Assembly: GCF_009683175.1 (NCBI RefSeq)
Contig: NZ_WKKW01000004.1
Span: 124,001-188,000 of the forward strand
Direction of reading: 5' to 3'
Origin: Bifidobacterium asteroides
GTDB taxonomy: Bacteria > Actinomycetota > Actinomycetes > Actinomycetales > Bifidobacteriaceae
Length of the DNA: 64,000 bases
The first letter of the stretch is position 1; every line of letters begins with the position of its first letter. The notes under the pieces were generated by a model. The model ran no database searches and was not told where the DNA came from. It was given only the letters and a program-made list of their open reading frames with translations. The position numbers and the translations under genes are program-made. Below, piece by piece: positions 47,807-64,000 of this stretch.

Positions 47807-47880
47807 GGGTCGCGTCCTCTCTAGCGTGGGGCGCGCCTCGCCGCATCCGGTCCGGCGCGCCCCGAGTCTCGGATCGTCGG

Positions 47881-47902: not shown

Positions 47903-47915
47903 CGACAAGCGGAGT

Positions 47916-47955
47916 GTACCACGAAAACGTACGTATATGTACGTTTTCGTGGTAC
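47916..47955. repeat. 40-bp palindrome, perfect 17-bp arms
   Basis: The arms (first GTACCACGAAAACGTAC) are exact reverse complements around a 6-nt centre GTATAT. Located in the intergenic space between the parA remnant and the YraN-like gene, both on the minus strand. Its size fits a centromere-like parS or operator site, or a strong terminator. It shares the CGTACG core with the neighbouring 22-bp palindrome. Confidence 0.75.
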
Positions 47956-48011
47956 AGGGGCCGGTTTCGGGGGAAAGCCCGGCCCCGGGAGCCCAGGGCC
48001 GGGCGCGCCGC

Positions 48012-48383
48012 CTAGGAGAGCGGCTCCATCTCGCCGAAGCAGTTGATGTGGTGGCGAAGGAGTGCGCGGTTCTCCTTGACGACCATCATCGCCACCTCGT
48101 CGAAGCGGACCGGGGTGTCGGCGTAGTCGTCGCCGTTGCCGGCGAGCCACCTCGCCGCCAGCGCCTCGCGCAGCCCGCGCGCCCTGTGGGCCTCGGGGAA
48201 GCCGTCCGTCCCGATCCGGACCGTGGCGTCGACGAAGACCAGGGTCCCGTCCTCGTCCACCGCCACGAGGTCGATCCCGCCGATGCCCTCGGGTCCCTGC
48301 CAGGCCTCGTCGACGATCTCGTAGCCCTTGCGCTCGAGGAAGGCCTTGACCGCGCCCATCGCCTTTTCCTTCATGTCGTTCAT
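48012..48383 (-). CDS. YraN-like nuclease-fold protein (UPF0102)
   Basis: 123 residues. Seen: [18 protein letters not shown], then [24 protein letters not shown] and [22 protein letters not shown], the core of the YraN/PD-(D/E)XK fold. The Asp of IDLVA is in place, while the expected ExK reads DAT, so catalysis is doubtful. The ATG at 48383 is preceded by AGGAG. The gene is GC-rich like the defence operon but opposite in strand. Confidence 0.72.
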
Positions 48384-48929
48384 GTCTTGCTCCTTAGACT
48401 CTGAGGCCCGCCCCTGTGGCGTGCCTTGCGCCGCGTGAGTCGCATGCAGCGCGGGCGTGCCTGCAAGGGAGGAAGCGAAGTCGGGCATGGAAATAGAAGT
48501 CTCCCGACGGCAGTTTTTCGCGTTGTTCGCGCGCGGAGCGCATGGGGCGAAGAACCCGAAAAAGTGTCGCGGCCCTTGCTGGCCGCCTGCCGGCGTGCGA
48601 CCCTGCGCGTCCAAGGAGCGCCGGGGCGGGTATTCGGATCAAAGGGGCGCAGGCGTGCGGCATGGAATCCGGCGTGGGCGCCGAGACCCTCCGGGCATGG
48701 GATGCGGCCCATCGGCGGTTGCTGGGCTCCCGCGGGGATTGACGACGACGTCGTGGCGGGGACGGAGGCGGGTTCCCGAGTCGCGGCGCCGCGGCATGAG
48801 TCGGGACGGACGGCTTTCCCGTGCCGCTTGCGGCCGATGTGCGCACAAGATCGCTGGCGGTGAGGCTTTCGTTGCGCGGAACGGCTACGGTGCTGCGCGA
48901 CACGTCCGTTGAGAGAAGGAGACGAGCTG
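48384..48929. other. GC-rich stretch with no supported gene
   Basis: About 545 bp, very rich in GC. Long open frames here on both strands are low-complexity Arg/Gly/Pro/Ala readings with no motif, as expected by chance in GC-rich DNA. I see no RNA gene or repeat. Confidence 0.5.
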
Positions 48930-49205
48930 ATGTTGGGCTACGAAGAGAAGGTGGAGCGCCTCGAACTGCTCGACGCGGTGGCGGATGCCGGGAGGCTGGC
49001 GAGGGGCCTGGACCAGCTGCTCGAGTCCCTGGCGCATGCCGACCAGCTGGACCCGCTCGACGTCGAGGGGATTCTGGCCCTGAAGTCGATAAGTGAGAGG
49101 TGCGCCGAGCGCATCGGCGACGCCGCGCGAATCTTGGAGGCTCAGAACGAGGTTCTCTACGCCGAGGAATGGGCAAACGCCAAACCTCGCGAAAACGAGA
49201 GATGA
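48930..49205 (+). CDS. small helical hypothetical protein
   Basis: 91 residues, predicted all-alpha: VERLELLDAVADAGRLARGLDQLLESL, then LDVEGILALKSISERCAERIGDAARILE. GAAGGAG lies 8 nt before the ATG at 48930, better than the in-frame TTG at 48909. No family is recognised. It is 168 bp before the RHH-like gene and on the same strand as the defence operon. Confidence 0.55.
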   Translation: MLGYEEKVERLELLDAVADAGRLARGLDQLLESLAHADQLDPLDVEGILALKSISERCAERIGDAARILEAQNEVLYAEEWANAKPRENER

Positions 49206-49323
49206 GGACCCGAACGAAAGCGGCCATCCAAGCCCTATCAGGGCGTCCATCGCCGTCCGCGCTCATATAAAGCCTGGACATCGGCTGTCCTCACATTCCC
49301 AGTGCCGCCGCGTGCCGTCGCGT

Positions 49324-49354
49324 TATAATGCTGCAAACGCATTTGTATTGCATT
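49324..49354 (+). promoter_or_regulatory. -10 box and imperfect palindrome before the defence operon
   Basis: TATAAT at 49324-49329 overlaps an imperfect inverted repeat, 49327-49354, in which AATGC and the more distant GCATT bracket CAAA and TTGTA. No good -35 is visible. Position before a small RHH-type protein gene suggests autoregulation of the operon. Confidence 0.45.
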
Positions 49355-49373
49355 TCGAGCGATGGGAGCGCAG

Positions 49374-49586
49374 ATGCCCGACAGCTACAAGGAGCTCATC
49401 AAGAGCAATCCCGACGAGACCGAGATCAGAAGCTTCCTGGTGGACGGCGACCAGGTCTCCGTGACCCTGCGCATCCCCGACACCCTGCGCGACGCGGCGA
49501 AGGAGGAGGCGGCCCTGCGGGGCATGAGCTTCTCCGCCTTCGTGCGCACCTGCATGATCGAAGAGCTCGCGAAAAAGGGGGCATAG
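49374..49586 (+). CDS. ribbon-helix-helix-like small protein, first gene of defence operon
   Basis: 70 residues from the ATG at 49374, with GGGA 6 nt upstream. The second half VSVTLRIPDTLRDAAKEEAALRGMSFSAFVRTCMIEELAKKG reads as a ribbon-helix-helix (a beta strand followed by two helices), typical of antitoxins and small repressors. It ends 4 bp before the helicase GTG, so it is in the same transcript and may control it. Confidence 0.65.
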   Translation: MPDSYKELIKSNPDETEIRSFLVDGDQVSVTLRIPDTLRDAAKEEAALRGMSFSAFVRTCMIEELAKKGA

Positions 49587-49590
49587 AGGC

Positions 49591-52500
49591 GTGAAGTCGC
49601 TAAGCAACGTCGGCGCGGAGCGCCTGGGAGACGCCCTCGGCGAATCCATCGACGACGGCGCGAAGTTGTCGATAATCAGCTCGTATTTCACCGTGTTCGC
49701 CTACGGGGAGCTCAAAGAGGAGCTCTCCAAGGTCGACGAGGTGCGCTTCCTGTTCAGCGAGCCCACCTTCATCAAGCGCATGGCCGACTCGAAGGAGCCG
49801 CGCGAGTTCGAGGTAGCCCGCCGCGCGCGCGAGGTCGGCGTCGGCGGCTCGGGGCTCGAGCTCACGCTGCGCAACAACCTAAACCAACGCGCGCTCGCCC
49901 GCGAATGCGCCGAGTGGATCCGCGAGAAGGGCGTCTTCAAGTCCGCCAAGACGTCCGGCGCCATTCAGCCGGGCGGCACCTACGTGGTGGAGAACCCATC
50001 CGGCGACGACCACGCCTTCATGGGCGCCGCCGCGAACTTCACGCAGGAGGGCCTCGGCTACGAGCGCCGTCCGGGAACCGTGACCTGCGTGAGCCATTTC
50101 GAGAACGCGACCGAGGCCGTCGGCCTCAAGATGATGTTCGAGTCGGTCTGGGACAACCCTGCCATGGTCGAGGAGGTCACCGCGCAGGTGGCCGCCCAGG
50201 TCGAGACGCTCTACCGCGAGAACCCGCCCGAGTTCATCTATTTCCTGACCCTGTACCACCTGTTCCGCGACTTCATGGAGGACGACGAGGACAACGGCAT
50301 CCGCCCCGGCCTCAAGTTCGAGGAGTCCGTGGTCTGGAGCAAGCTCTACGACTTCCAGAAGGACGCCGTCGTGGGCGCCATCCGCAAGCTGGAGAAGTAC
50401 AAGGGCTGCATCATCGCCGACTCGGTGGGCCTGGGCAAGACCTACGAGGCGCTCGCCGTCATGAAGTACTACCAGGAGCGCAACGACCGCATCCTCGTGC
50501 TGTGCCCGAAGCGCCTGCGGGACAACTGGACCCTGTGGACGCAGGACAACGACGACCGCAACCCGCTGGCCGACGACCGCTTCAGCTACACGGTGCTCAA
50601 CCACACCGACCTGTCGCGCTACCACGGCATGAGCGGCGAGGTGGACCTCGAGCACCTGCGCTGGGGCCACTTCGACCTCCTCGTCATCGACGAGAGCCAC
50701 AACTTCAGGAACAAGAGCACCGACGCGGACAAGACCGACCGCTACACGCGCCTCATCGAGGACGTCATCAAGTCGGGCCAGCGCACGAAGGTGCTCATGC
50801 TCTCTGCCACCCCGGTGAACAACCGCCTGCTCGACCTGCGAAACCAGATCGAGCTCATCACCGAGGGAGACGACGCGTACCTCGCCGATACCGATGGCAT
50901 CCCGTCGATCACCCACGTGACGCGCGTCGCCCAGCAGAGGTTCAACGAGTGGAGCAAGCTCTCCGACTCCGAGCGCACGACCGAGAGCTTCGTGAACGCG
51001 GTGAACGCCGACTACTTCAAGCTGCTCGACGTGCTGACCATCGCGCGCAGCCGCAAGCACATCACGAAGTACTACGGCGCCGCGAGCGGTACCTTCCCGG
51101 CGCGCCGGCCGCCCCTGTCGTTTCAGACGCCCATTGACCTAGAAGGCGAGCTGCCGCCGATTGCCGTGCTCAACGACATGATCGCCCAGCTCACGTTCGC
51201 CCAGTACCAGGTGCTCTCCTACGTGCGCGCCGACCAGCGCCGCAAGTACGAGGACCGCTACGGGGACACGTGGGGCAAGGACTTCGAGAGCCAGGTCCAC
51301 CGCACGACGGCGGTGGCCAACCTCATGCGCGTCAACGTCCTCAAGCGCATGGAGTCCTCCGTGAACAGCTTCCGCATCACGCTGCGACGAATCCTCGACG
51401 GCTGCGTCGACCTGCGCGCGAGGCTCGACGCCGACGCGTCGGGGGTCGCCTACGGCACCGAGGGCCTCGAGGACGGGTTCGACGACGACGATGCCGAGGA
51501 GTTCGAGGCCGGCGGCAAGGTGCGAGTCGACCTGCGAGACGTCGACGCCCTGCGCCTGGGCCAGGACCTCGACTTCGACATCCAGGTGCTCCGGGCCCTG
51601 CTAACCTATGCCGACGCGGTGACGCCCGAGCGCGACGCCAAGCTCGTGAAGCTGCGCGACTTCATCGCGGGCAAGGTCAGCGAGCCGTACAACCCCGGCA
51701 ACCGCAAGGTGCTGGTGTTCAGCGCGTTCGCCGACACGACGGCGTACCTTTTCGAGCAGCTGGCGCCCTGGCTGAAGCGCGAGCTCGGAATCGAGTGCGC
51801 CGAGGTGGCGGGCAGCTCCAACCGGACCTACTCGCTGAAGCTTCCCAGGACCACCTTCGAGAACATCCTCGCGAGGTTCTCTCCCGTCTCAAAGGAGCTG
51901 CCGGAGAGCCAGCGGGAGCTCGGCGAGATCGACGTCGTCTTCGCGACGGACTGCATCTCCGAGGGCCAGAACCTGCAGGACTGCGACTGCCTGGTGAACT
52001 ACGACATCCACTGGAACCCCGTGCGTATCATCCAGCGCTTCGGCCGCATCGACCGCCTGGGATCGAAGAACTCCCAGATCCAGCTGGTCAACTTCTGGCC
52101 GGACATCGCGCTCGACGAGTACATCCAGCTCGAGGGCCGCGTGAAGGGGCGCATGGCGCTGCTCGACGCGTCGGCAACCGGCGAGGAGAACGTGCTGGAG
52201 GCCAAGGGCAATGGAGAGATGAACGACCTCAAGTACCGTCGCCGGCAGCTCCAGCAGCTCAAGAGCGAGGTGCTCGACCTCGAGGACATCTCGGGCGGCA
52301 TCTCGATCACGGATTTCGCCTTCGACGACTTCCGCGTGGAGCTCCAGCGCTACGCCAAGGAGCATCCCGGCGCGTTGGAGAACTCGCCGGCGGGACTGCA
52401 CGCCGTGGCCCCCATCCCCGACGAGCTTCGCAGCGACGTGAAGCCAGGCGTGGTCTTCTGCCTCAAGCAGAACGACGAGGGCAACGATCCCAGGGACACG

Positions 52501-52836
52501 AACCCTGTCTTCCCGTACTACGTGGTGTACGTGTCGGCCGACGGCGAGGTCATGACGAAGCACACCCAGCCCAAGCCGGCGCTCGACATCATGCGCGCCG
52601 TCTGCTCTGGGCATCCCGAGCCCATCGCTAAGCTGTGCCGCGAGTTCAACCGCGAGACCCGCGACGGGACGAGGATGGACGCCTACACCGACCTGCTTGA
52701 CGATGTCGTTGCGGCCATCACCGGAACGCAGCAGGACAAAGGCATCGAGAGCCTGTTCAGCCTGGGAGAGGTCGGCAGCGGCACCGTCATGGGCTTCAAC
52801 GACTACTCGTTGGTATGTTTCGCGGTGCTGCGATGA
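49591..52836 (+). CDS. SNF2-type helicase with N-terminal PLD-like domain
   Basis: 1081 residues. The N-terminus (about 1-170) has ISSYFTVFAYGELKEEL and EVRFLFSEPTF, characteristic of phospholipase-D-fold helicase-related proteins. The SF2 core has Walker A-type DSVGLGKT (residues 277-284), VIDESHNFRNKSTD (DEAH-like, from 367), SATPVNN (III), and motifs V-VI ATDCISEGQNLQDCD...RIIQRFGRIDRLGS near residue 790. GTG start. Such helicases accompany DUF4391 and methylase genes in defence islands. Likely a DNA translocase that works with the following genes against foreign DNA. Confidence 0.9.
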   Translation: MKSLSNVGAERLGDALGESIDDGAKLSIISSYFTVFAYGELKEELSKVDEVRFLFSEPTFIKRMADSKEPREFEVARRAREVGVGGSGLELTLRNNLNQRALARECAEWIREKGVFKSAKTSGAIQPGGTYVVENPSGDDHAFMGAAANFTQEGLGYERRPGTVTCVSHFENATEAVGLKMMFESVWDNPAMVEEVTAQVAAQVETLYRENPPEFIYFLTLYHLFRDFMEDDEDNGIRPGLKFEESVVWSKLYDFQKDAVVGAIRKLEKYKGCIIADSVGLGKTYEALAVMKYYQERNDRILVLCPKRLRDNWTLWTQDNDDRNPLADDRFSYTVLNHTDLSRYHGMSGEVDLEHLRWGHFDLLVIDESHNFRNKSTDADKTDRYTRLIEDVIKSGQRTKVLMLSATPVNNRLLDLRNQIELITEGDDAYLADTDGIPSITHVTRVAQQRFNEWSKLSDSERTTESFVNAVNADYFKLLDVLTIARSRKHITKYYGAASGTFPARRPPLSFQTPIDLEGELPPIAVLNDMIAQLTFAQYQVLSYVRADQRRKYEDRYGDTWGKDFESQVHRTTAVANLMRVNVLKRMESSVNSFRITLRRILDGCVDLRARLDADASGVAYGTEGLEDGFDDDDAEEFEAGGKVRVDLRDVDALRLGQDLDFDIQVLRALLTYADAVTPERDAKLVKLRDFIAGKVSEPYNPGNRKVLVFSAFADTTAYLFEQLAPWLKRELGIECAEVAGSSNRTYSLKLPRTTFENILARFSPVSKELPESQRELGEIDVVFATDCISEGQNLQDCDCLVNYDIHWNPVRIIQRFGRIDRLGSKNSQIQLVNFWPDIALDEYIQLEGRVKGRMALLDASATGEENVLEAKGNGEMNDLKYRRRQLQQLKSEVLDLEDISGGISITDFAFDDFRVELQRYAKEHPGALENSPAGLHAVAPIPDELRSDVKPGVVFCLKQNDEGNDPRDTNPVFPYYVVYVSADGEVMTKHTQPKPALDIMRAVCSGHPEPIAKLCREFNRETRDGTRMDAYTDLLDDVVAAITGTQQDKGIESLFSLGEVGSGTVMGFNDYSLVCFAVLR

Positions 52837-53615
52837 GCGGCATCGACTGGAACGGAATCCTGCGCCTGCCCGAAGCGGCGCTCGCGGGATGCCGCCGCAT
52901 TCCCAAGACGGTGCTCGTCAAGCAGGCCATGCTCACCAAGACCGAGCAGAAGAGGCTCGACAAGGTCGCGCGCCTCGAGCACTTCGCCACGGTCCAGAAG
53001 TCCACGACGCGCATCCCGCCGTACGAGGACGACGAGCGCAACGTGCAGAGCGTCGTCTTCCTCCGTTGCGAGATGACAGCCGGGACCATGGCGGTGGCCG
53101 AGGTGGCGGAGCTCGTGCACAAGTGCTTCCCGAACCCGACGGTGCTCCTGGTCGAGGCGGGCGGCTGCGCGTGCATATCGGTCGCCCTCACGCGGAGGAG
53201 CCAGGCCGAGCAGGGCGCGACGGTCGTCGACCGAGTCGAGTCGACGGGCGCGTTCGATCCTGGCCGTTCAGAATACGCGGACTTCCTAGGCGCGCTGGCA
53301 TTCGGGCGGCTCTCGCAGGGCGACCTCTGGGAGTACCTGGTCGACCTGTCGCGCACCGTAGCGCTGTCCCGCGCGATTGGCGGCCTGGGGTTCTACCCCG
53401 TATGCCCCGCTCGAGACCGGGAAAAGCTGATCGCCCTCACGTCGCGCTACGATGAGATGGGAGCCTCCGTCAAGCGGCTGAAGGAGCAGCGGCGGTCGAA
53501 GGACATAACGCTCAACGAGTCCGCGAAGCTGAGGATGGAAATGAAGGAAGAGGAGCGACGCCTGAGGGCGGTCGCCGATGAGATAAAGGAGATCTGCAAT
53601 GGCCGTTCTAGATGA
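52833..53615 (+). CDS. DUF4391 protein
   Basis: 260 residues. Seen: the DUF4391 pattern WNGILRLPEAALAGCRRIPKTVLVKQ, then QKSTTRIPPYEDDERNVQSVVFLRCEM and WEYLVDLSRTVALSRAI; the C-terminal third is a charged coiled coil. The ATG at 52833 overlaps the helicase stop (ATGA); an in-frame ATG 18 nt earlier is less likely. Function unknown. DUF4391 genes are regularly neighbours of helicase/methylase defence operons, so it is inferred to be a component here. Confidence 0.85.
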   Translation: MSGIDWNGILRLPEAALAGCRRIPKTVLVKQAMLTKTEQKRLDKVARLEHFATVQKSTTRIPPYEDDERNVQSVVFLRCEMTAGTMAVAEVAELVHKCFPNPTVLLVEAGGCACISVALTRRSQAEQGATVVDRVESTGAFDPGRSEYADFLGALAFGRLSQGDLWEYLVDLSRTVALSRAIGGLGFYPVCPARDREKLIALTSRYDEMGASVKRLKEQRRSKDITLNESAKLRMEMKEEERRLRAVADEIKEICNGRSR

Positions 53616-54393
53616 GTATATTTTGCGAGCGGCGCGCCTTTTGAGTGATGCTGCAGATGAGGATGTTGATGCGCTCTGCCGTGAAATCATGCAGGTCTTC
53701 GACCTCGACTACACTAACCCCGAGGCTTTAAAATATATCAATTCCTCAAGCTCATTTCGCTACTCGAAAAGCGACCTAGGGATGATTCTCCAGAAGCTGC
53801 GCCTAAAGCGGGAAGACTCAGACGACAAAGCGTTCGGTGCCGCATTCTGCGCAACTATAACGCAGCATATCAGGAGACTGGAGCAAGCTCTTGAAGAGGG
53901 CGTGAAAGACGACGAGCTCAAAGCCGTATACGACTCAATCGACTACGTCTACGCAAACGCGAGGGGCTACGACTCCTACACGGACGGACTAGCCTCCTAT
54001 TCCTATGGGTCTTCCAATCGCAATGATTTCAACGATGAACAGACGCAACTACGTATCGACAAACTGAAGCATTTCCGTGATGAGGAGCTCCGTAAGCTGA
54101 AAATCGCCGAAGCGCAGGGCGCTAGCGTCAGCCTCACGGCATCCGCCACGAGCAACGTACAGGTCACGTTAGAGGCAACCTTTGAACAGATTGACAAATT
54201 GCCAGAGACAACGCTTTCCGATGACGAGAAGACGCTGCTCAAAGGGATGATGGGCGATCTCAACACAAAAGATAAAAGCAAACGGGGCAGCAAGCTTGAC
54301 AAACTCCTGAGCTGGCTTGCCGGCAAGGGCACCGACGTTTTTATTGCCGCCATGCCCTACATAGTTCAACTAATCAAATCTCAACTTTCCTAG
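53599..54393 (+). CDS. unassigned protein of the defence operon
   Basis: 264 residues, overlapping DUF4391 by 17 nt and ending 11 bp before mod. The first half is helical (ILRAARLLSDAADEDVDALCREIMQVF, DLGMILQKLRLKRED). The middle is Ser/Tyr/Asn rich (DSYTDGLASYSYGSSN). A beta-like part VSLTASATSNVQVTLEATFEQI follows. The end has a hydrophobic helix (FIAAMPYIVQLIKSQL). I do not recognise a family. The strict packing argues that it is part of the system, not a passenger. Base composition is less GC-rich than the flanking genes. Confidence 0.75.
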   Translation: MAVLDEYILRAARLLSDAADEDVDALCREIMQVFDLDYTNPEALKYINSSSSFRYSKSDLGMILQKLRLKREDSDDKAFGAAFCATITQHIRRLEQALEEGVKDDELKAVYDSIDYVYANARGYDSYTDGLASYSYGSSNRNDFNDEQTQLRIDKLKHFRDEELRKLKIAEAQGASVSLTASATSNVQVTLEATFEQIDKLPETTLSDDEKTLLKGMMGDLNTKDKSKRGSKLDKLLSWLAGKGTDVFIAAMPYIVQLIKSQLS

Positions 54394-54404
54394 GAGGAGA
54401 CCTC

Positions 54405-55616
54405 ATGGGCGAGATAGAAAAGATGACTCTTGAATCGGAGAGTCTTATTGACGACCGCCTGAATAAGCTCAAGGAGCTGATGCCCGAAGTGTTCTCCGAG
54501 AGCGGAATCGACTTCGACAAACTGCGGCTGGAGCTTGGCGACGAGGTAGACGAGGGCCTGGAGCGCTATGCGTTCACGTGGCCCGGCAAGGCCGATGCCA
54601 TCCGCCAGTCGCAGATGTCCAGCACTGCTACTTTGCGTCCCCGTATCGAGAAAAGCCGCAGCCGCGATGGAGAGGATGGGTCCTTCGACTCGGACAACAT
54701 TTATATCGAAGGCGACAATCTCGAGGTGCTGAAGCTCCTACAGCGCGGCTACCACGGCAAGGTCAAGATGATCTACATCGACCCACCCTACAACACGGGT
54801 CACGACTTTGTCTACAAGGACAATTTCGGCAACTCTGTCGATAACTATAAGGAGCAGGCGGGACTCGCCGGCCAGTCCAACGCCGACACAAGTGGCCGCT
54901 ACCATAGCGACTGGTGCTCGATGATGTACCCTAGGTTGAGACTGGCTCGAGAGCTCCTAACCGACGATGGCGTCATTTTCATTTCGATTGACGATAACGA
55001 AGACCGCAATTTGCGCATCCTCTGTGACGAGGTGTTCGGAGAGGCAAATTTCGTTTCTCAGCTAATCTGGGAACGAGCTTACTCGCCCAAGAATGACGCC
55101 AAATACGTTTCAAATAGCCATGATTATGTTCTCGTATACGCCAAATCCATTGAGCGCTTTGTGATTGGACGCCTGCCGAGAACAGACGAGGCAAACGCCC
55201 GCTACAAGAATCCAGACAACGACCCTCGAGGCGTTTGGAAGCCAAGCGACCTCAGTGTAAAGACTTACAGCCCAGATTCCGACTATCCAATCACAACGCC
55301 CTCGGGGCGTGTTGTAGAGCCTCCAGCAGGACGCTGCTGGAGGCTCTCGCGAAACGCGTTTCGCGAGAGACTCCAGGATAACCGCATTTGGTTTGGCCCA
55401 AACGGCGACAGCGTCCCTTGCATCAAGCGTTTCCTAACAGAGCTCAAATATGATGGAATGGCTCCAACTTCAATCATGTTTTACAAAGAAGTGGGTCACA
55501 GCCAGGAAGGCGCCAAGGAGCTCGTATCTCTATTTGACGGAAAGGGCTATTTCGATGGACCGAAACCGACGAAACTACTTCAGCGCCTGATAACCCTTGC
55601 GAATCTGCTAATGTGC
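54405..55616 (+). pseudogene. mod: type III modification methylase (mod), N-terminal piece
   Basis: About 400 residues of a beta-class adenine-N6 methyltransferase, preceded by AGGAGG. Seen: NIYIEGDNLEVLKLLQ, the catalytic DPPY motif YIDPPYNTGHDFVYKDNF near residue 127, IFISIDDNEDRNLRILCDEVFGEANFV, and the target-recognition part ending PPAGRCW...NRIWFG. In the intact gene the SAM-binding FxGxG motif follows; here the frame instead runs into inserted DNA and stops at 55640. The rest continues at about 58983. The split gene cannot make a working methylase. Confidence 0.9.
55317..55370. repeat. two adjacent strong hairpins inside mod
   Basis: First: 14-bp arms AGAGCCTCCAGCAG / CTGCTGGAGGCTCT with a 4-nt loop (55317-55348). 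Second: a 26-bp perfect palindrome (55345-55370) overlapping it by 4 bp, beginning CTCTCGCGAAACG. Both are coding (the PPAGRCWRLSRNAFRERL stretch of Mod). In mRNA or single strands they would form very stable adjacent stems. Confidence 0.8.
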
Positions 55617-55693
55617 GATAAAGAAGTAATAGAAGTGTAAAAAATTTTGCCGTTCCTATCCGGCACTTAGGGCTGTGTCGGATAGGTCAGGCG

Positions 55694-56296
55694 TTAGGCT
55701 TCCGGCAAGTCTATCTTGCCGACAAAGCTGTAATAAATCTCAATGTCCTGCCTGCGGGTGCCGTTCTCGTCATAGCTGCACTCATGCACGACGATTTTCT
55801 CAATCATTTCCCGCAAGAGGGTGGGGGTCAATTCTTCAAAAGCAAGGTGCTTTCTCACAATCCCCATGAATTTCTCGGCGTTGACGGTGGCGGCCTGCGA
55901 CTTGGAAAGTTCCTCCTGCAAAGCGGCAGCCCGGTCTTTCAGTTCCCGCTGCTCCTGCTCATAGTCCGCCGACAGCTCCATGAAACGCTCGTCGCTGATT
56001 TTGCCGCTTACATTGTCCTCATACAGCCGCTTGATAATGCGGTTCACTTCGGCAATGCGTGTCTGGGCCTGTTCAAGCTGCTTCGTGGCTGCGGCGGTCT
56101 TTCTCTTGCCGCCGATTTCGTTCTGCTGGATGAGCAGCTTTACAAAGCGGCTCTCATGCCTGGCGGCGTATTCCGTCACTTGCCGGAGATTGGAAAGCAC
56201 GCCCGCCGTCAAAAGGTCGGTGCGGATAAAGTGTGCCGTACAGTCACGGGTACGCTTCTTGTAGCTGCCGCAGATATAACAGTCCTGCTTGCGGTT
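55694..56296 (-). pseudogene. large serine recombinase, C-terminal fragment
   Basis: About 200 residues preceded in frame by a stop (56297). Seen: a zinc-ribbon remnant CYICGSYKKRTRDCTAHFIR, a coiled coil (TKQLEQAQTRIAEVNRIIKRLYEDNVSGKISDERFMELSADYEQEQ) and the terminal EIYYSFVGKIDL, the pattern of TnpX/TndX-type recombinases of Firmicutes conjugative elements. The catalytic serine domain is missing, so it is inactive. It lies downstream of tet(W), on the same strand. Confidence 0.85.
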
Positions 56297-56400
56297 CTAT
56301 TCGTCTGTTCCTGGTTCAAAATAGTTTCTCCTCTCTGATACTGATTTTATCAATGATATTTCGCAATAGCCAGCAATGAACGCTTGCATTGCGCAAGACG

Positions 56401-58320
56401 TTACATTATCTTCTGAAACATATAGCGCACCTTGTCCAGGCGGCTGTTTGGACGGCGGGGCTGGATGACTGGCTTGCCGACAGCGGCCTGATACCCTTTC
56501 AGTTCTGTAAGGCATACGCTCTGCCCGTTGGTGTAAAAGGCCAGATCAGTACGGTATGCCTGTATACAGCGGGCGGGAATCTCGCCAGTAAAGACAACTT
56601 CATCCTTTTTTACCTGGACCGTTTCGATGGTGGCACAGTATTTCGGTGCATCATGATAAGCCCTGGAAAGATATTCCCGGGGCGCATAGAGGGTGAAGGA
56701 GAGATAAGGTTCCAGCAGTTGCGTCCCTGATTCCTTCAATGCCTGTTCCAATACAATCGGGGCCAATGAGCGGAAGTCCGCCGGCGTGCTGACCGGACTG
56801 TAATAAAGCCCGTATTCAAAGCAAATCTTACAGTCCGTTACGTTCCAGCCGAACAAGCCCTGCTCCAGCCCGTAACGGATACCATCCCTGACAGCGTTTT
56901 GAAAACTCTGGTTCAAGTATCCCAGCGAAACCCGGCTCTCGTATTGTACACCGGAGCCAAGCGGGAGTGGTGTAACAGACAGTCCGATGGATGCCCAAAA
57001 CGGGTTGGGCGGCACCTCGATATGGATGGTGTGGCTGGCTGCTTTGAGCGGCCGCTCCATATAAATGACGGTGGGTTCCTTTACCACTGTTTCAAGCTTG
57101 TATTTTTCCGACAGCAAAGCGGAAACAACCTCCAACTGCACCCGGCCCAAAAAAGAAAGAATGATCTCATGGGTGATGGAATCCACCTCGCAGCGCAAAA
57201 GCGGGTCAGTATCCGCAAGTTGCGTAAGAGCGTCCAGCAGCCGTTCTCTTTGCGCTGCCGTTTTCGGCGCAATCGACGTCCGCAGCATGGGGAGGGGGTC
57301 CTCACGCCACCTTTTACGAGGGAGCCGGGTTGGGTCCCCTAATACATCGTTTAACCTCACGCTGTCGCTGGGAAGGATAACAATTTCACCCGGATAAGCG
57401 GTGTCTGTCCGAACAATTTCCCCTTTGGATGGAATACGCATCTCTGTGATTTTCAGCTTTTCTCTCCCGGCCAGGGCCACCGTATCCCGCAGGCGCAGCG
57501 TTCCGCTGTATAGCCGTAGATAGACACGCCGCTGGCCGCAATCTGTATACTCCACCTTGAAAACGCTGCCGCATAGGGCGGCGCTCCCCTGTTCCCCAAT
57601 CGGTTGGAACAGCCCTGTCACCGCATCCATCAACGGTTGAATGCCAAGGCCCTTTTTGGCGCTGCCATAATAGACCGGGAACAGGGAGGCGTCTTGAACC
57701 CGCCGCTGTTCCTCCCGCACAAGTTTTTCCCGGCTGATTGGTTCTCCTGCGATATACTTTTCCAATAATTTATCGTTATTTTCGATGACCGCATCCCATG
57801 CTTCTATGTCGGTATTTTCCTCCAGGACTATTTCCGGGGACAGCGACACCGTCTGCTTGATGATAATATCGGCGGAGAGCTTATCCCGAACAGACTGAAC
57901 CACGCTCTGCAAATCAACGCCAGCCTGGTCGATCTTGTTGATAAAGATAACGGTGGGAATGTTCATTTTCCGCAGGGCATGGAACAGAATACGGGTCTGG
58001 GCCTGCACGCCATCTTTAGCGGAGATCACCAAGATGGCCCCATCTAAAACAGCCAAAGAGCGGTACACCTCCGCCAAAAAATCCATGTGGCCGGGCGTAT
58101 CCACAATGTTGACTTTACATCTGTGCCACTGGAAGGAAGTGACTGCCGCTTGAATGGTAATCCCACGCTGCCGCTCCAAAAACATGGTGTCCGTCCTCGT
58201 TGTCCCTTTTTCGACGCTCCCCGGTTCTGAAATGGCTCCGCTGGCATATAGCAGGCTCTCCGTCAAGGTCGTCTTTCCAGCGTCTACATGGGCAAGAATT
58301 CCAATATTGATTATTTTCAT
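56401..58320 (-). CDS. tet(W): tetracycline resistance ribosomal protection protein Tet(W)
   Basis: 639-residue EF-G-like GTPase that removes tetracycline from the ribosome. Seen: G1 [31 protein letters not shown] (G2), DTPGHMDF (G3), NKIDQAG (G4), and the C-terminal domain IV loop region up to [18 protein letters not shown]. Length and sequence agree with tet(W); the few residue differences from the common allele that I recall do not alter the assignment. The ATG at 58320 follows the attenuation leader. It is AT-richer than the surrounding genes, consistent with a Firmicutes origin. Confidence 0.97.
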
Positions 58321-58350
58321 GTGATTGTCCTCCCTTTACTGCCCCGAAGG

Positions 58351-58392
58351 GCATAAAAATCCCCAGCAGTAAAATACTTTTACCACTGGGGA
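58351..58392 (-). terminator. leader terminator (attenuator) before tet(W)
   Basis: Minus-strand hairpin with 14-bp arms (12 paired, CCCCAGTGGTAAAA/TTTTACTGCTGGGG) and a run of T just after it, 31 bp upstream of the tet(W) start. It would stop transcription before tet(W) unless the leader adopts an alternative fold. Confidence 0.8.
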
Positions 58393-58478
58393 TGATAATT
58401 TGCGGACATACACATATGCAGCATACACCTGTTTGTGAGTGCTGTTTTTGGGGATATGTCAAAATTGATAAGGCAAAA

Positions 58479-58575
58479 GTATTCTTAAATTGGGTACAAA
58501 AAACTAAGCCCCTACAAAATGGACTATCATAATCCTTTGTTCCCACTATTTGATTATAGTTTTATTTAAGAATAC
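58479..58575 (-). promoter_or_regulatory. anti-terminator repeat pair in the tet(W) leader
   Basis: GTATTCTTAA (58479-58488) and TTAAGAATAC (58566-58575) are exact reverse complements, one inside the leader peptide frame and one before the attenuator. They can pair and compete with or delay the terminator, as in tet(M)-type attenuation. Regulation by tetracycline-slowed ribosomes is inferred from that family. Confidence 0.6.
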
Positions 58576-58585
58576 CTTGCCGCAT
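58562..58585 (-). CDS. tet(W) leader peptide
   Basis: Seven-codon frame MRQGILK with AAGGAG 8 nt before the ATG. It overlaps the anti-terminator arm at 58566-58575. A translating ribosome here would couple drug-induced stalling or uncoupling to read-through of the attenuator. Confidence 0.72.
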   Translation of the reverse strand: MRQGILK

Positions 58586-58614
58586 ATTTTTTACTCCTTT
58601 TCTGGACTTGAATT

Positions 58615-58643
58615 ATTATATCACATCAGTTTTAGGAAAACAA
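58615..58643 (-). promoter_or_regulatory. tet(W) promoter
   Basis: On the minus strand: -35 TTGTTT (58638-58643), 17-bp spacer, -10 TATAAT (58615-58620), about 30 bp before the leader peptide start. Confidence 0.75.
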
Positions 58644-58682
58644 GTATCTAAAAGAAATTTTTCTTCCCCTTATATGTAACAA

Positions 58683-58787
58683 TCATACCGGCTTCCTAAC
58701 GTTCAGAATGGTTTCTACTGTCTGCTGCGGTGTTTGGTTGGAATTGTCCAGCCAAAAGCCGATCCGTGGTGTTGTCTGCATTTTACT
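58683..58787 (-). pseudogene. C-terminal fragment of a P-loop kinase/zeta-toxin-like gene
   Basis: Minus-strand frame ending at TGA 58683 reads TTPRIGFWLDNSNQTPQQTVETILNVRKPV, the style of the C-terminus of small AAA/zeta-type kinases (a ...DNS/DTS...ET... tail). The N-terminus with its P-loop is absent. It lies immediately upstream of the tet(W) promoter and is probably scar tissue of the donor element. Confidence 0.45.
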
Positions 58788-58982
58788 AAATACAAATTCA
58801 ATGTATACAGAAAGAAATATATAAGGAGTGGGAGGGATTCCGCCGTAGTCGGCATTGTAGGAAAATCCAAAAGTTTAGATTTTCTCAAAATGCTTATCTT
58901 TTGGTCTTTGGTTCGGAATAGTGTAGTGCTGGCGGTCTATCTATTGTTTTCGGTTGCTTGCTTCTTTACCGTACATGAGCAT

Positions 58983-59651
58983 TTAAGCACGGGTGATATT
59001 GTGCTTGATTTTTTCTCAGGCTCAGCATCGACCGCCCATGCCATGTTCCTGCAGGAGCTCGGAAAAGATGATCGCTATCAGTTTATCCTTGTCCAGCTTC
59101 CAGAGCCTTGTGACCCGAAACGCGACGCCTACAAGGACGGGTATGAGACTCTCTGCGACATAGGCGAAGGACGCATTCGCCGCGCAGGCGACAAAATCAA
59201 AACCGAGCTCGAGGAATCCAACCGTCAACTCAAGCTTGGCGAGGGACCCAAGCAGCTTCCCGACATCGGCTTCCGTGTGTTCGAGCTCGATGAGTCCGGC
59301 ATTGAGAAGCCCGAGCCCGGTCAGCTCCTCTTCGACGTGGTCAAGCCCGATCGCTCCGATATGGATATCGTCTTCGAGATGATGCTCAAATGGGGCCTCG
59401 AGCTCACGCTGCCCGTCGAGAAGTCTGAAGCCGCGGGCTATCCCATCTGGTCCGTCGCTTGCGACGAGCTCGTCTGCTGCATGTCCCGAGGCCTCACCAT
59501 TGAGGCGCTCGAGGCCATCGCCGACATGGAGCCCAGGCGCGTTCTCATCCTCGATTCCGTCCTCGACGACACCCTCAAGCTCAACGCCGTGCAGATCTTC
59601 AAGCACGCCGGCGAGCGCATGGGCTGTGAGATCGAATTGAGGACGGTCTAG
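58983..59651 (+). pseudogene. mod: type III modification methylase (mod), C-terminal piece
   Basis: Continues Mod with GDIVLDFFSGSASTAHAMFLQEL (SAM-binding FSGS motif), then VQLPEPCDPKRDAYKDGYETLCDIGEGRIRRAGDKI and a C-terminal domain (VFEMMLKWGLELTLPVEK, VACDELVCCMSRGLTIEALEAI). About 220 residues. It has no own ribosome site or start near the junction. Its stop is 1 bp before the res ATG, so the original mod-res operon was tight. Confidence 0.9.
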
Positions 59652-59652
59652 C

Positions 59653-62600
59653 ATGGCGGCGCTCGAGTTCAAGTTCTCATCCGACCAGCAGCACCAGCTG
59701 GAGGCCATCGAAGCAACCTGCGACCTGTTCCGCGGACAACAATTTATTGGCAGCGTATTCTCCGCCGATTCCGGCCGCAAAGGCCAGACGGCAATCGGCG
59801 AGCTCATGGTCGGCCACGGCAACGAGCTTCGCGTGGCGCCGGGCCAGCTCCTCGACAACCTGCACGCCGTGCAGGAGGAGGGCTGCCTCCCGGCAACCGA
59901 CGTCCTCACCGATGGGCGCCTGCGAGACTTCACCGTCGAGATGGAGACCGGCACCGGCAAGACCTACGTCTACATCCGCTCCATCTACGAGCTAAACCGC
60001 CGCTACGGCATCACCAAGTTCGTTATCGTCGTGCCGAGCGTGGCCATCCGCGAGGGCGTCCTCAAGAGCCTCCAGACCACCCGCAGGCACTTCGAGACGC
60101 TCTACGACCGCACGCCGCTCGACTACTTCGTGTACGACTCGAAGGACATGGGGCCGGTGGGTAACTTCGCCACGTCGAGCTCCATCCAGGTCATGGTCAT
60201 CAACATCGACGCGTTCAACAAGGGCCTCGAGAAGGATGGCACCGCGAAGGAGGGCAACCTCTTCCACCGTCCCAGCGAGAAGCTCACCGGCGGCTTCAGC
60301 CCTCGCGAGCTCGTGAGCGCCTGCAAGCCCGTCGTCATCATCGACGAGCCCCAGAGCGTCGACAACACCAAGCAGGCCAAGGCCGCCATCAAGAGCCTGA
60401 ACCCGCTGTTCGTGCTGCGCTACTCGGCCACGCACAAGCAGGCCTACAACATGATCTACCGCCTCACGCCGGTCGACGCCTTCGAGCGCCACCTGGTGAA
60501 GGGCATCTGCGTGGACTCGATCAAGGCCGAGGCGAACCTCAACGGCGCGTACGTGAGGCTCGAGTCCGTCAAGTCCGACCCGTTCTCCGCCAAGGTGTCC
60601 ATCGACGTGCGCCAGGCCGACGGCACGCAGAAGCGCAAGGCCGTCACGGTGAAGACCGGCAACGACCTCTACCAGAAGAGCGGCGAGAACAGCGACTACG
60701 AGAGCGGCTGGGTGGTCAACAACATCGGCGCCGCAGTGGGCGACGAGTTCATAGAGTTCCAGAACGGCGAGGTGCTCGAGCTCGGCGAGGCGCTGGGCGA
60801 CGTCAACGAGGAGGTCGTCAAGCGCGCGCAGATCCGCCGCACCATCGAGGACCACCTGGCCCGCCAGTTCGAGCTGTGGCCGCGCGGCGTGAAGGTGCTC
60901 TCGCTCTTCTTCATCGACCGCGTCGACCGATACCGCGTCTACGAGCCCGAAGTCCACGGCGGCCTGTACGCCCTGATGTTTGAGGAGGAGTACGCAGGTG
61001 CCCTGAACTCGAAGGCGCCTCGTCGCATCGCAAAGGCGGCGGGGATCGGCAAGGGCACGTGGCTCGAGTGCTACGAAGCCGTCGGCGCCCCGCTGGTGCG
61101 CGACCCCCACGCCGTGCACCAGGGATACTTCGCCAAGGACAAGAAGGGCAAGTTCAAGGACTCCAAGGGAGCCGCCGGCACCGCCGACGACGCCGGGGCC
61201 TTCGAGCTCATCATGCAGAAGAAGGAGACGCTCATCTCCTTCCCGGACGGCAAGGACGCGGACAAGGACGTCTCTTTCGTCTTCAGCCACTCCGCGCTCA
61301 AGGAGGGCTGGGACAACCCCAACGTGTTCCAGATCTGCACGCTCGTCGAGACAAAGGACAACCTGACCAAGCGCCAGAAGATCGGCCGCGGTCTGCGCCT
61401 GTGCGTGAACCAGGATGGCGAGCGCCTGTACGACCCAGAGGCGAACGTGCTCACCGTCATCGCGAACGAGAGCTACGACGACTTCGCCAACGGCCTGCAG
61501 AAGGAGCTTGAGGCTGAGGACTTCAAGTTCGGCGTCATCACTCCGGAGAGCTTCACGAAGGTCACGGTCAAGGGCGATGATGGCGTCGAGGAGCGCCTGG
61601 GCTACGAGAAGTCCAAGCAGGTCTACGACCACCTCGTCGCGACCGGCATGGTCGACGACAAGGGCGCGGTGACGCCCGAGCTGAAGGCGGCCGCCGAGGA
61701 GGGCAAGGTCGAGCTCCCCGCCGAGCTCGAGCCTGCCAAGGAGCAGGTCGAGGCGATCATCATCCACAAGTCCCAGAGGGTCCAGATCCGTGACAAGGCC
61801 AAGGAGGTCTCGGTCGAGCTGCAGAAGGACGTCACGCTCGACCCTGCGTTCCAGGCCCTGTGGGACCGCATCCGCCAGCGCACGCGCTTCCAGGTCGAGG
61901 TCGACTCCGGCAAGCTCATCGAACATGCCATCGAAGCTGTCGACGGCATGCTCGCCGTGCGCCCGCCCCAGGTGACGAGCGAGCGTGCCTCGCTGGGCAT
62001 CGACGACGCGGGCGTGAGCGCCGAGGGCACGGGCACCTCCGTGGTGTCCGTTTCGGGAAAGGTGAAATACGACCTTCCCGACCCGATCGCAGAGCTGCAG
62101 GACGCCGTCGGGCTCACCCGCGGCACCATCAAGGCGATCCTCGAGGGCTGCAGCCGCCTCGACGAGTTCGAGATCGACCCCGCGACCTTCCTCGCGCAGG
62201 TCGGCGACAAGATCAACCGCGTGAAGAACGACCTCATCGCCCAGGGCATCAAGTACGTGCGCCTTCCCGAGGACGAGTGGTACACCATGCGCGACCTCGA
62301 GCTTGACGACTACACGGCCTACCTTGGGCAGAACGCGTGGAAGCCGGACATGACGAGCAAGAGCCTGTACAACTACGTGGTCTACGACTCGGCGGGGGTC
62401 GAGCGCTCCTTTGCCGAGGCTCTAGACAAGCAGGAGGAGGTTCTCGTGTTCGCGAAATTGCCCTCGGCGTTCAAGATCGACACGCCGCTCGGCAGTTACA
62501 ACCCCGACTGGGCGTACGTCGAGGAGGCCGACGGCGAGCGCCGCGTGTACTTCGTGACCGAGACCAAGGGCGGCAAGAACGGCGAGCCCGCCCTGCGCGA

Positions 62601-62715
62601 CGCGGAGAAGATCAAGATCGGCTGCGCCAAGAAGCACTTCGAGGCGCTGGACCTCGGAAACGACTTCCATTACAACGTGCGCACGACCTACCAATACGAG
62701 GCGGTGAAGGCTTAG
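59653..62715 (+). CDS. res: type III restriction enzyme subunit Res
   Basis: 1020-residue helicase-nuclease. Seen: Walker A ETGTGKTYVYIRSIYEL (residues about 98-104), IIDEPQSVDN (DEPQ in place of DEAH), VLRYSATHK, FSHSALKEGWDNPNVFQICTL, and RQKIGRGLRLCV (motif VI). The C-terminal PD-(D/E)XK nuclease is NPDWAYVEE...VTETKGG near residues 950-975. Cleaves DNA only in complex with Mod, so with mod broken it is expected to be inert. Full length and intact. Confidence 0.93.
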   Translation: MAALEFKFSSDQQHQLEAIEATCDLFRGQQFIGSVFSADSGRKGQTAIGELMVGHGNELRVAPGQLLDNLHAVQEEGCLPATDVLTDGRLRDFTVEMETGTGKTYVYIRSIYELNRRYGITKFVIVVPSVAIREGVLKSLQTTRRHFETLYDRTPLDYFVYDSKDMGPVGNFATSSSIQVMVINIDAFNKGLEKDGTAKEGNLFHRPSEKLTGGFSPRELVSACKPVVIIDEPQSVDNTKQAKAAIKSLNPLFVLRYSATHKQAYNMIYRLTPVDAFERHLVKGICVDSIKAEANLNGAYVRLESVKSDPFSAKVSIDVRQADGTQKRKAVTVKTGNDLYQKSGENSDYESGWVVNNIGAAVGDEFIEFQNGEVLELGEALGDVNEEVVKRAQIRRTIEDHLARQFELWPRGVKVLSLFFIDRVDRYRVYEPEVHGGLYALMFEEEYAGALNSKAPRRIAKAAGIGKGTWLECYEAVGAPLVRDPHAVHQGYFAKDKKGKFKDSKGAAGTADDAGAFELIMQKKETLISFPDGKDADKDVSFVFSHSALKEGWDNPNVFQICTLVETKDNLTKRQKIGRGLRLCVNQDGERLYDPEANVLTVIANESYDDFANGLQKELEAEDFKFGVITPESFTKVTVKGDDGVEERLGYEKSKQVYDHLVATGMVDDKGAVTPELKAAAEEGKVELPAELEPAKEQVEAIIIHKSQRVQIRDKAKEVSVELQKDVTLDPAFQALWDRIRQRTRFQVEVDSGKLIEHAIEAVDGMLAVRPPQVTSERASLGIDDAGVSAEGTGTSVVSVSGKVKYDLPDPIAELQDAVGLTRGTIKAILEGCSRLDEFEIDPATFLAQVGDKINRVKNDLIAQGIKYVRLPEDEWYTMRDLELDDYTAYLGQNAWKPDMTSKSLYNYVVYDSAGVERSFAEALDKQEEVLVFAKLPSAFKIDTPLGSYNPDWAYVEEADGERRVYFVTETKGGKNGEPALRDAEKIKIGCAKKHFEALDLGNDFHYNVRTTYQYEAVKA

Positions 62716-62716
62716 G

Positions 62717-63601
62717 ATGTCGAAGCTGCCCGGAAAGATGACGCGAAAGCAGCACTGGGTGCCGCGGTTCTACCTGCGCCATTTCGCGGATTCCTCCGGG
62801 CAGCTTCATGCCTACAGCAGACAGAAGGGCTCCTTCTTCCGCACGAATTGCGAGAACCTTTGCAGCATGCGCGATCTTTATGAGGTCGAGCATGCCGATG
62901 CGACAGGCGATGCGACAGACAGATTCTATGCGCAGAACCTCATCGAGGTTAAGCTATCTGAGCTCGAGAGCCGCATCGCGCCGCTTTACGATCGCTTTTT
63001 GGAACGCCAGAAAGAAGACCAGTGCGAAGACGAAGGGTATTCTGATGGGAAAGCCGCCGTTTGCGAGCTGGCAGCAAATATCATCGTCCGGCACCCTATC
63101 AGTATGCGCGTCGACAAGAAATGGTCACGCGAGACTGCCGAAGAGCTGCTCAGAAACGTTCATCTGACACCCTATGAGCTCGGCTTGCTCGATTGGTCGG
63201 ATTGGCGCGGGGATTCCCAAGCGGTGGTCGAGCTTGCCGCCGCCGCAACCATGCTCTTCTCCAACGATGATATTGTGCCAGTTAACCGTATTCGAAAGGC
63301 TTTTTTTGAGAAGAGCTTCTCCATCCTTAGGGCACCCGTCGGCTCAGGGTTCGTTACGACGTCGATGCCTATGTTCATCATCGGGCCCGAGGACGACTCG
63401 TACGATTTTCATCTCGCGTATATGCCGTTGAGCAGTGAGTATGCTGCGGTCTTTTCAGATGACCCTCTATTTCCGCCGTTTGCGAGACTCGGTTTTTCGG
63501 GCGTCGAGTTCATGAACCGACTTCTTCTGCTTAACTGCGAGCATTGGGATGTCGCCATATCGAGGGGAAGCGGCCCGCTCGAGCACGCGGTACGCGATTG
63601 A
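62717..63601 (+). CDS. DUF4238 protein
   Basis: 294 residues. Seen: the signature TRKQHWVPRFYLRHFADSSGQLHAYSRQKGSFF near the N-terminus, typical of DUF4238, and a hydrophilic helical remainder. Starts 1 bp after res, so it is part of the operon. DUF4238 proteins are found beside many restriction-type islands. Its role is unknown; an inferred toxin or nuclease-associated function should be treated as a guess. Confidence 0.85.
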   Translation: MSKLPGKMTRKQHWVPRFYLRHFADSSGQLHAYSRQKGSFFRTNCENLCSMRDLYEVEHADATGDATDRFYAQNLIEVKLSELESRIAPLYDRFLERQKEDQCEDEGYSDGKAAVCELAANIIVRHPISMRVDKKWSRETAEELLRNVHLTPYELGLLDWSDWRGDSQAVVELAAAATMLFSNDDIVPVNRIRKAFFEKSFSILRAPVGSGFVTTSMPMFIIGPEDDSYDFHLAYMPLSSEYAAVFSDDPLFPPFARLGFSGVEFMNRLLLLNCEHWDVAISRGSGPLEHAVRD

Positions 63602-63625
63602 AGTCAAGCGAACAGTGCCGAATTC

Positions 63626-63844
63626 ATGCACGAGATGTTCACGCGCGACGGCAGGGAGCTATCCCTCGACACAGTGATCTACGACCGCTCGAAGAAGAAG
63701 GGGCAGACGATGATCGATACCATCGACCGTGGCTGCCTCGAGGGCGGCTGCCTTGATGACGAGGACCTGCGCATCATCTTCGAGCACCTTCTGGGGAGAA
63801 GACGGCAAGGACCGGGAACATTAAAGGGTCAAGCAGCGTATTGA
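63626..63844 (+). CDS. small acidic hypothetical ORF
   Basis: 72 residues from ATG 63626. Reading includes FTRDGRELSLDTVIYDRSKKKGQ and GCLEGGCLDDEDLRIIFEHLLGRR. No family is recognised and no clear ribosome site. It may be a remnant between the type III operon and the DUF262 gene. Real coding is uncertain. Confidence 0.3.
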   Translation: MHEMFTRDGRELSLDTVIYDRSKKKGQTMIDTIDRGCLEGGCLDDEDLRIIFEHLLGRRRQGPGTLKGQAAY

Positions 63845-63895
63845 TAAAATTGACCCCGCCAGCAATAACCGCAAAGGATAGATAGGGCTTTAAGG

Positions 63896-64000
63896 ATGGA
63901 TGCAGGAAAAGCAACGATAAGCGGCGTGTTCAACGGATCGCGCCTGCTCGAAATACCTTTTTACCAAAGGGCGTACGTCTGGGGAGAAGAGCAATGGGAG
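63896..64000 (+). CDS. DUF262 (GmrSD/ParB-like) protein, 5' end only
   Basis: The first 35 codons are in the window: MDAGKATISGVFNGSRLLEIP followed by FYQRAYVWGEEQW. The IPFYQRAYVW segment is the hallmark of DUF262, the GmrS-type N-terminal domain of modification-dependent restriction enzymes. AAGG lies immediately upstream of the ATG. The remainder lies beyond the right edge, so the class and full length are unknown. Confidence 0.75.
   Translation, partial: MDAGKATISGVFNGSRLLEIPFYQRAYVWGEEQWE

What the first reader, a model, noticed from the sequence alone, without database searches (positions are those of the whole stretch)
55610..58985. tet(W) cassette inserted between the catalytic and SAM-binding motifs of the type III methylase
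Mod's DPPY motif lies left and its FSGS motif right of the insert. The fragments match one protein, so the cassette landed in an active gene. Modification would be lost, and since Res needs Mod for recognition, restriction too. It trades defence for tetracycline resistance and could open the host to more foreign DNA.
Basis: partly seen in the sequence, partly recalled or inferred. Interest (0 to 1): 0.78.

Follow-up and report, generated by a model that had tools for sequence, protein, structure and literature searches.

The report
Tetracycline element splitting a methylase gene
A small tetracycline-resistance element has split the DNA-methylase gene of a bacterial defence system, and the same break is found in distantly related bacteria, in one of them with near-identical surroundings, because the region appears to travel as a mobile island.

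Summary
A 3,376-bp unit (55606-58981) splits the type III mod gene between the DPPY part (left) and the SAM-binding motif DFFSGS (right), with no detectable loss of Mod. It is a partial IME_Rho_tet(W), a family published in 2026: both 21-bp terminal inverted repeats are present, the serine recombinase is cut to its last ~200 codons, and there is no room for a relaxase. One relative (G1115) has the empty site.

The context changes the reading. Mod, Res and the insert lie in a ~23-kb island at the 3' end of guaA, with a tyrosine integrase and a NikA-like mobilisation protein. Five genomes of two Coriobacteriia families share the right-hand mod junction, two of them both junctions. One (G1011) is 99.8-100% identical per kb over 19 kb, while guaA beside it is ~65% identical where aligned. 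So this host most likely received the island with mod already broken; it did not trade away its own defence. Of 29 genomes found with the element's right end, 14 have it in this island family, at three places. A separate insertion sits in the mod gene of Enteroscipio rubneri. Loss of methylation and restriction was not measured.

The parts
45196..64000 (.). part of the guaA-associated island inside the window (continues to about window 68484 in L320)
   Evidence: homology to the far ends of the G1011, G1082 and G1089 islands starts at 45196; 9-bp repeat ACTCCCACT at 45196 and 68485
48909..48910 (.). second insertion site of the same element family, empty in the window (TT core)
   Evidence: G1037, G1043, G1102, G603 and G1083 carry the element's right end here
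49591..52836 (+). HKD+Snf2 helicase
   Evidence: PADLOC PDLC01075 E 4.6e-112
52815..53615 (+). DUF4391 protein
   Evidence: PF14335 E 4.2e-26
53599..54393 (+). 264-aa protein of unknown family between DUF4391 and mod
   Evidence: no Pfam, NCBIfam or PADLOC match at E 0.001
54405..55605 (+). N-terminal part of type III Mod (catalytic motif DPPY, then the presumed target-recognition region); the open frame runs on to a stop at 55640 inside the element
55604..55605 (.). left 2-bp core (TC)
   Evidence: natural empty site in L301
55606..55626 (.). 21-bp terminal inverted repeat, recombinase end (3' TIR of IME_Rho_tet)
   Evidence: PMC12904643
55694..56298 (-). C-terminal remnant of a large serine recombinase
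   Evidence: PF14287 (DUF4368) E 7.8e-23 in 55697-56212; 55611-56298 is identical to the nearest percent in five of 117 left-end loci
56401..58320 (-). tet(W), 639 aa, open
   Evidence: NCBIfam NF033148
58961..58981 (.). 21-bp terminal inverted repeat, tet(W) end (5' TIR of IME_Rho_tet)
58982..58983 (.). right 2-bp core (TT here; TC in G1041 and G1082)
58984..59651 (+). C-terminal part of Mod with SAM-binding motif DFFSGS
59653..62715 (+). type III Res, 1020 aa, open
   Evidence: PADLOC PDLC03647 E 4.6e-301
62717..63601 (+). DUF4238 protein, downstream neighbour in the island
   Evidence: PF14022

Best explanation
[quoted passage not shown] An internal deletion (junction at 56298), before or after that insertion, removed the relaxase region and all but the last ~200 codons of the recombinase. 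This left tet(W) between two terminal repeats, fixed in place unless a recombinase acts in trans. The island, with Mod split and tet(W) aboard, then moved as one piece between Coriobacteriia families and into this host (probably a bifidobacterium), in an order not determined. Mod without its SAM-binding half should be dead, so modification is lost and the orphan Res should be inactive. Shown: element identity and ends, precise insertion, split Mod, shared junction, high identity of the island against diverged guaA. Inferred: order of deletion and insertion, direction of transfer, loss of function.
For: Ends, repeats and cores. Family: PMC12904643 (tet(W) ~656 bp from the 5' TIR, recombinase stop 81-90 bp from the 3' TIR; here 661 bp and 88 bp). 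No loss of Mod seen: PADLOC model positions 404/408; the G490 homologue is collinear across the junction. Empty site with a frame open across it in G1115. Right-hand junction in five other genomes, both junctions in two. Island 99.8-100% per kb against guaA ~65%; integrase 100% identical in G1011 and G1041 while GuaA is 53%. Copies of the guaA-end sequence at both ends of the island in G1011 and G1082. Element in this island family in 14 of 29 genomes.
Against: The left att copy in the window is short (9 bp); in G1041 only one copy was found in the 100 kb held, and in G1089 the copy at the integrase end is not followed by guaA in the stretch held. No relaxase was found for the island among the proteins scanned, only a NikA-like protein. 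G1115 is not a complete mod copy. The right core differs (TT in four genomes, TC in two), so two insertions at one site are not strictly excluded. G1041 is only 93.8-97% identical to the window in several kb of helicase, DUF4391 and res, so the copies also have a history of recombination. Other restriction systems of this genome were not surveyed.
Confidence: 0.84

Rival explanations
1. The cassette inserted in this host's own resident, working type III system, and the host traded defence for resistance.
For: Both Mod pieces remain in open frames and Res is full length.
Against: The identical junctions with 19 kb of near-identical flanks are in G1011, whose guaA is only ~65% identical, and the right-hand junction is in four more genomes. 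Of 26 other genomes of the genus searched none has the insert, and one has a detectable match to the right Mod half (30% identity).
Confidence: 0.06
2. The tet(W) unit moves as a non-autonomous mini-element of about 3-4 kb, using recombinase from a co-resident complete IME_Rho_tet, and entered this mod in its shortened form. (Compatible with the best explanation; it settles the order of deletion and insertion.)
For: Both repeats are present. 14 two-ended copies were seen, of 11 lengths (3.4 kb or so; the one of 6.2 kb has an extra insertion); C. acnes plasmid pTZC1 has one of 3,363 bp. One shortened form is collinear end to end (94.6%) at two different targets, in Enorma massiliensis (L192) and G772 (L193), as if it had moved.
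Against: The window's own form was seen at this one target only (window, G1011, G1041). By end-to-end collinearity the 14 copies fall into 8 forms, most at one target each, which fits decay after separate insertions. No circular form was looked for.
Confidence: 0.35
3. The two Mod halves are both made and assemble into a working split methylase, so modification persists.
For: Both frames are open; the right frame could start at TTG 58734 inside the element.
Against: The break lies just before the SAM-binding motif, inside the cofactor-binding part (motif order recalled). Promoter-like matches in the region are no more than in shuffles (4 found, mean 3.8, sd 2.0).
Confidence: 0.05
4. Assembly misjoin.
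For: The contig is one of 17 of a draft genome; nothing else.
Against: Other assemblies carry the same junctions at both ends (G1011, G1041) or at the right end (G1057, G1082, G1089).
Confidence: 0.01

Closest known systems
IME_Rho_tet (PMC12904643, Sidibe et al. 2026; abstract, introduction, methods, results and discussion read; supplements not seen)
   Same: tet(W), 21-bp TIR layout, tet(W) ~656 bp from one end, recombinase stop 81-90 bp from the other; partial elements reported in 20 Actinomycetota genera.
   Different: Here the relaxase region and most of the recombinase are deleted. The paper's main text has no hit for 'restriction', 'guaA', 'Enteroscipio' or 'Eggerthella'. Its commonest target is MAFF2 ORFs (116 of 256 sites); here it is a type III mod inside a guaA island.
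tetW cassette of Bifidobacterium thermacidophilum pig isolates (PMC5561799; abstract and passages read)
   Same: tet(W) beside a serine recombinase gene, inserted inside a gene of a bifidobacterium, with the site defined from susceptible strains.
   Different: Its target is a permease gene. The passages mention type I restriction genes elsewhere in those genomes, but no island and no restriction gene at the cassette.
tet(W) unit of C. acnes plasmid pTZC1 (NZ_LC473083)
   Same: Both terminal repeats, recombinase 3' end, tet(W).
   Different: Plasmid-borne, other target, not collinear with the window's unit end to end.
Type III restriction-modification systems
   Same: Mod and Res neighbours match PADLOC MTase_III and REase_III.
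   Different: Mod is split; an HKD+Snf2 helicase and DUF4391 precede mod.
guaA-integrated genomic islands (Tn5801-like islands, GIsul2; search listings only; site recalled)
   Same: Integration at guaA with a site-specific integrase.
   Different: Cargo and hosts; relatedness was not tested.

Membership tests
IME_Rho_tet | 21-bp terminal inverted repeats at both ends | tested here: met
   55606-55626 and 58961-58981
IME_Rho_tet | tetracycline ribosomal-protection gene ~656 bp from one TIR | tested here: met
   tet(W) start 58320, TIR outer end 58981
IME_Rho_tet | serine recombinase ending 81-90 bp from the other TIR | tested here: met
   stop at 55694, TIR outer end 55606, 88 bp; only the C-terminal part is left
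IME_Rho_tet | relaxase (needed for a 'complete' element) | tested here: not met
   no room: about 100 bp lie between the recombinase remnant (to 56298) and the tet(W) stop (56401); hence 'partial'
Type III restriction-modification | Mod with DPPY and FxGxG-type motif in beta order | tested here: met
   present but on two fragments
Type III restriction-modification | Res with helicase and endonuclease domains | tested here: met
   PF04851, PF19778, PDLC03647
Type III restriction-modification | methylation and restriction activity | not testable with these tools
   needs long-read methylation data or an assay
guaA integrative mobilisable island | tyrosine integrase next to the guaA 3' end | tested here: met
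   PF00589 in L320:2038-3105, guaA stop at window 68483
guaA integrative mobilisable island | direct att repeats at both ends | tested here: inconclusive
   17-bp probe found at both ends in G1082 (no mismatch) and G1011 (1 and 2 mismatches), two copies in G1089 but no guaA seen there, one in G1041; only 9 bp at the window's left end
guaA integrative mobilisable island | relaxase or transfer genes | tested here: inconclusive
   NikA-like protein found; no relaxase among the proteins scanned; not every ORF was scanned

The most novel reading that the evidence does not exclude
Disarming the island's own type III system helped the island spread: an island whose Res can no longer act is safer to receive in a new, unmethylated host, so tet(W) copies with a dead or missing defence module are the ones seen in many hosts. 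In support, of 14 island copies with the element, mod is split in six; the window-type helicase-mod-res part is not next to the element in the three third-site copies (protein search over ~40 kb in G1036 only); and no helicase, Mod or Res match was found in the ~20 kb held of four of the five second-site copies. A related mod is split independently in Enteroscipio. Against it, the fifth second-site copy (G1043) keeps contiguous Mod and Res homologues, and islands without the element were not surveyed as a baseline.
Probability: 0.13. Interest if true: 0.75.

Novelty: new variant of a known kind. Interest (0 to 1): 0.5.

Why it matters
The 2026 description of IME_Rho_tet found complete tet(W) elements in gut Bacillota only and leaves open how tet(W) reached so many Actinomycetota. 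Here a shortened element rides in a guaA island that is nearly identical in two classes, which gives one concrete vehicle. It also moves the 'defence lost for resistance' idea from the host to the island, where it can be tested by comparing island copies.

Tried and rejected
Misjoin was rejected by other assemblies. Resident-gene disruption was disfavoured by the shared island. An RNA gene as att site in 44-50 kb was sought and not found (0 matches). Promoter-like signals for separate expression of the right Mod half were no more than in shuffles. Paper searches listed no paper whose title or abstract start concerns this island or tet(W) in a type III mod; apart from PMC12904643 and PMC5561799 the listed papers were not opened (PMC8319848, was searched for words only). 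Structure prediction was not used. The class search with the right-end pattern found only this genome (1 of 394).

I first held that each target site has its own deletion. A check showed that this is wrong: L192 and L193 share one form at two targets, and the form of L226, L229 and L236 at the second site is also in L232, whose right flank is the mod site. I raised the mini-element rival from 0.2 to 0.35 and lowered the best explanation slightly for this and for the G1089 end.

Limits of '14 of 29': the 29 genomes come (1 of 394, 6 of 396, 15 of 138, 12 of 65, with overlaps; one search used a longer pattern). The last two are families chosen because they had hits, so this is not a rate. Copies with only a right end are included.

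Full report
What is there. The left open frame 54405-55640 and the right fragment 58986-59648 match consecutive parts of one type III Mod model (PADLOC PDLC03634, positions 3-404 and 408-614 of 621). DPPY is in the left part, DFFSGS in the right. Between them lie a serine-recombinase remnant (DUF4368) and tet(W) on the minus strand (NCBIfam NF033148). Res follows at 59653-62715.

Ends of the insert. The unit is bounded by two imperfect 21-bp inverted repeats, 55606-55626 and 58961-58981, so it is 3,376 bp long. Their target side is not random: before the pattern, T is found at -5 in 117 of 117, T at -7 in 116, T at -6 in 114, C at -15 in 105 and A at -19 in 100. The window has the same letters except C at -6. 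This is what a large serine recombinase leaves around a two-base core, TC at the left and TT at the right in the window. In G1041 and G1082 the right core is TC, and the natural empty site of G1115 reads TC. The second insertion site at 48909-48910, empty in the window and filled in other genomes, shows the same two-base overlap, TT.

What the insert is. It fits IME_Rho_tet (PMC12904643; abstract, introduction, methods, results and discussion read, supplements not): tet(W) ~656 bp from one repeat, recombinase stop 81-90 bp from the other, 21-bp repeats. Here there is no room for the relaxase and the recombinase is cut to about its last 200 codons, so it is a partial element. The stretch 55611-56298 is identical, to the nearest percent, in five of 117 left-end loci (L023, L027, L074, L090, L130). 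The tet(W) side from 56298 on is 99.7% and 99.9% identical in a Limosilactobacillus plasmid and in Streptococcus phage phi-SsUD.1, so 56298 is read as a deletion junction. In four of the 117 loci tet(W) lies in the stretch held. Motif order, and the rule that type III Res needs Mod, are recalled knowledge.

No loss of Mod was seen. The G490 homologue (657 aa, 62% identical on the left) is collinear across the junction. Of 14 relatives examined, 12 have one open frame with both motifs (605-713 aa). The other two are G1115, whose frame runs through the site but whose Mod residues 1-253 are not in the contig, and G1057, where only the right half is held.

The same break elsewhere. The right-end pattern was sought in the class (1 of 394, own only), the phylum (6 of 396) and two families (15 of 138 and 12 of 65), giving 29 genomes. 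Six have the right junction in this mod gene: the window's, G1011, G1041, G1057, G1082, G1089. G1011 and G1041 have both junctions. In G1082 the left flank is that of the second site; in G1089 the stretch from within the helicase gene to tet(W) is missing; G1057 is cut by its contig. Five genomes have the element at the second site (G603, G1037, G1043, G1083, G1102) and three beside a missing helicase-mod-res part (G1036, G1092, G1124). That makes 14 of 29 in this island family. One more, G1005, has a contig of the length of the Enteroscipio rubneri ResAG-96 record (92,699) and a separate insertion in a related mod (61% identical over 247 residues) at another place. Two families were chosen because they had hits, so these are counts, not rates.

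The island. Own sequence from 47021 to 68692 aligns with G1011 at 99.0%. Per kb, 49-68 kb is 99.8-100%, and identity then falls off at guaA, which is 65% identical over the 613 columns aligned. G1041 is less uniform: 93.8-97% in parts of the helicase, DUF4391 and res region, 99.6-100% around mod and the element. The integrase is 100% identical in G1011 and G1041, while GuaA protein is 53%. A 17-bp guaA-end probe is found at both ends of the island in G1082 and G1011; G1089 has two copies but no guaA in the stretch held, G1041 one copy, and the window's left end only nine bases of it. The island holds a tyrosine integrase and a NikA-like protein, a GmrSD pair of frames, DUF4238, the HKD+Snf2 helicase and DUF4391. 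G1011 has 18.6 kb more at 47.0 kb of the window's numbering. Of seven proteins scanned there and beside it, one is adhesin-like, one has NlpC/P60 and glucosaminidase domains (a type also seen in conjugative elements, recalled), and five have no Pfam match. That this host is a bifidobacterium is inferred from phosphoketolase beside guaA and from the make-up of its class search; no name was given. That f77 and f91 are Coriobacteriia rests on contig lengths equal to those of Enteroscipio rubneri (92,699) and Enorma massiliensis (1,607,085), both Coriobacteriia in NCBI taxonomy. The tool ranks both families only as of the same phylum as the window.

How it works, most likely. The element entered the island's mod in another host; a deletion, before or after, took away its mobility genes; the island with broken mod and tet(W) moved between families and into this host. 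Mod without motif I should not bind SAM, so the mark and Mod-dependent restriction should be absent. Function was not tested. The order of deletion and insertion is open. Fourteen two-ended copies of 11 lengths fall into 8 forms by end-to-end collinearity. Window, G1011 and G1041 share one form at one site (G1041 with an extra insertion). One form is shared by Enorma massiliensis (L192) and G772 (L193) at different targets, which speaks for movement of shortened units.

Against this reading. The core differs between copies (TT in four, TC in two), so two insertions at one site, or two outcomes of a mismatched core, cannot be told apart. G1043, with the element at the second site, keeps contiguous Mod and Res homologues (33-40% identical), so the element does not always go with a broken system; in the other four second-site copies no helicase, Mod or Res match was found in ~20 kb. 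Other restriction systems of this host were not surveyed.

Verdict. Observation confirmed; host-level trade-off not supported; new variant of a known kind.

Noticed in passing
window 49591-62715 and loci L180-L183, L220, L301, L321-L328: An HKD+Snf2 helicase match lies upstream of mod in 11 of 14 relatives examined (not in G953, G490, G1115), usually with DUF4391 between, as if helicase, DUF4391, Mod and Res form one module.
   Followed up: partly
window 55337-55376: A 40-bp near-perfect palindrome inside the mod coding sequence; the own genome matches it in reverse at 95%, and the relative L301 has it too.
   Followed up: no
L228 (G1041), window equivalent 58666-58680: A 2.8-kb GC-rich insertion with a 15-bp duplication lies upstream of tet(W); alignments break at the same place in G1057 and G1083. 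Its frames look like insertion-sequence genes by eye; no family scan was made.
   Followed up: partly
L320:16-1600 (window 64016-65600): GmrSD-type restriction gene in two overlapping frames (N part and C part); G1011 has one open frame of 567 aa there.
   Followed up: no
L119/L220 (Enteroscipio rubneri): Independent tet(W) unit in another type III mod; the mod piece beyond the insert ends early, so that gene looks degraded further.
   Followed up: partly
L225, L235, L238: In three genomes the tet(W) unit is joined directly to the island at window 64817 and the helicase-mod-res part is not beside it.
   Followed up: partly
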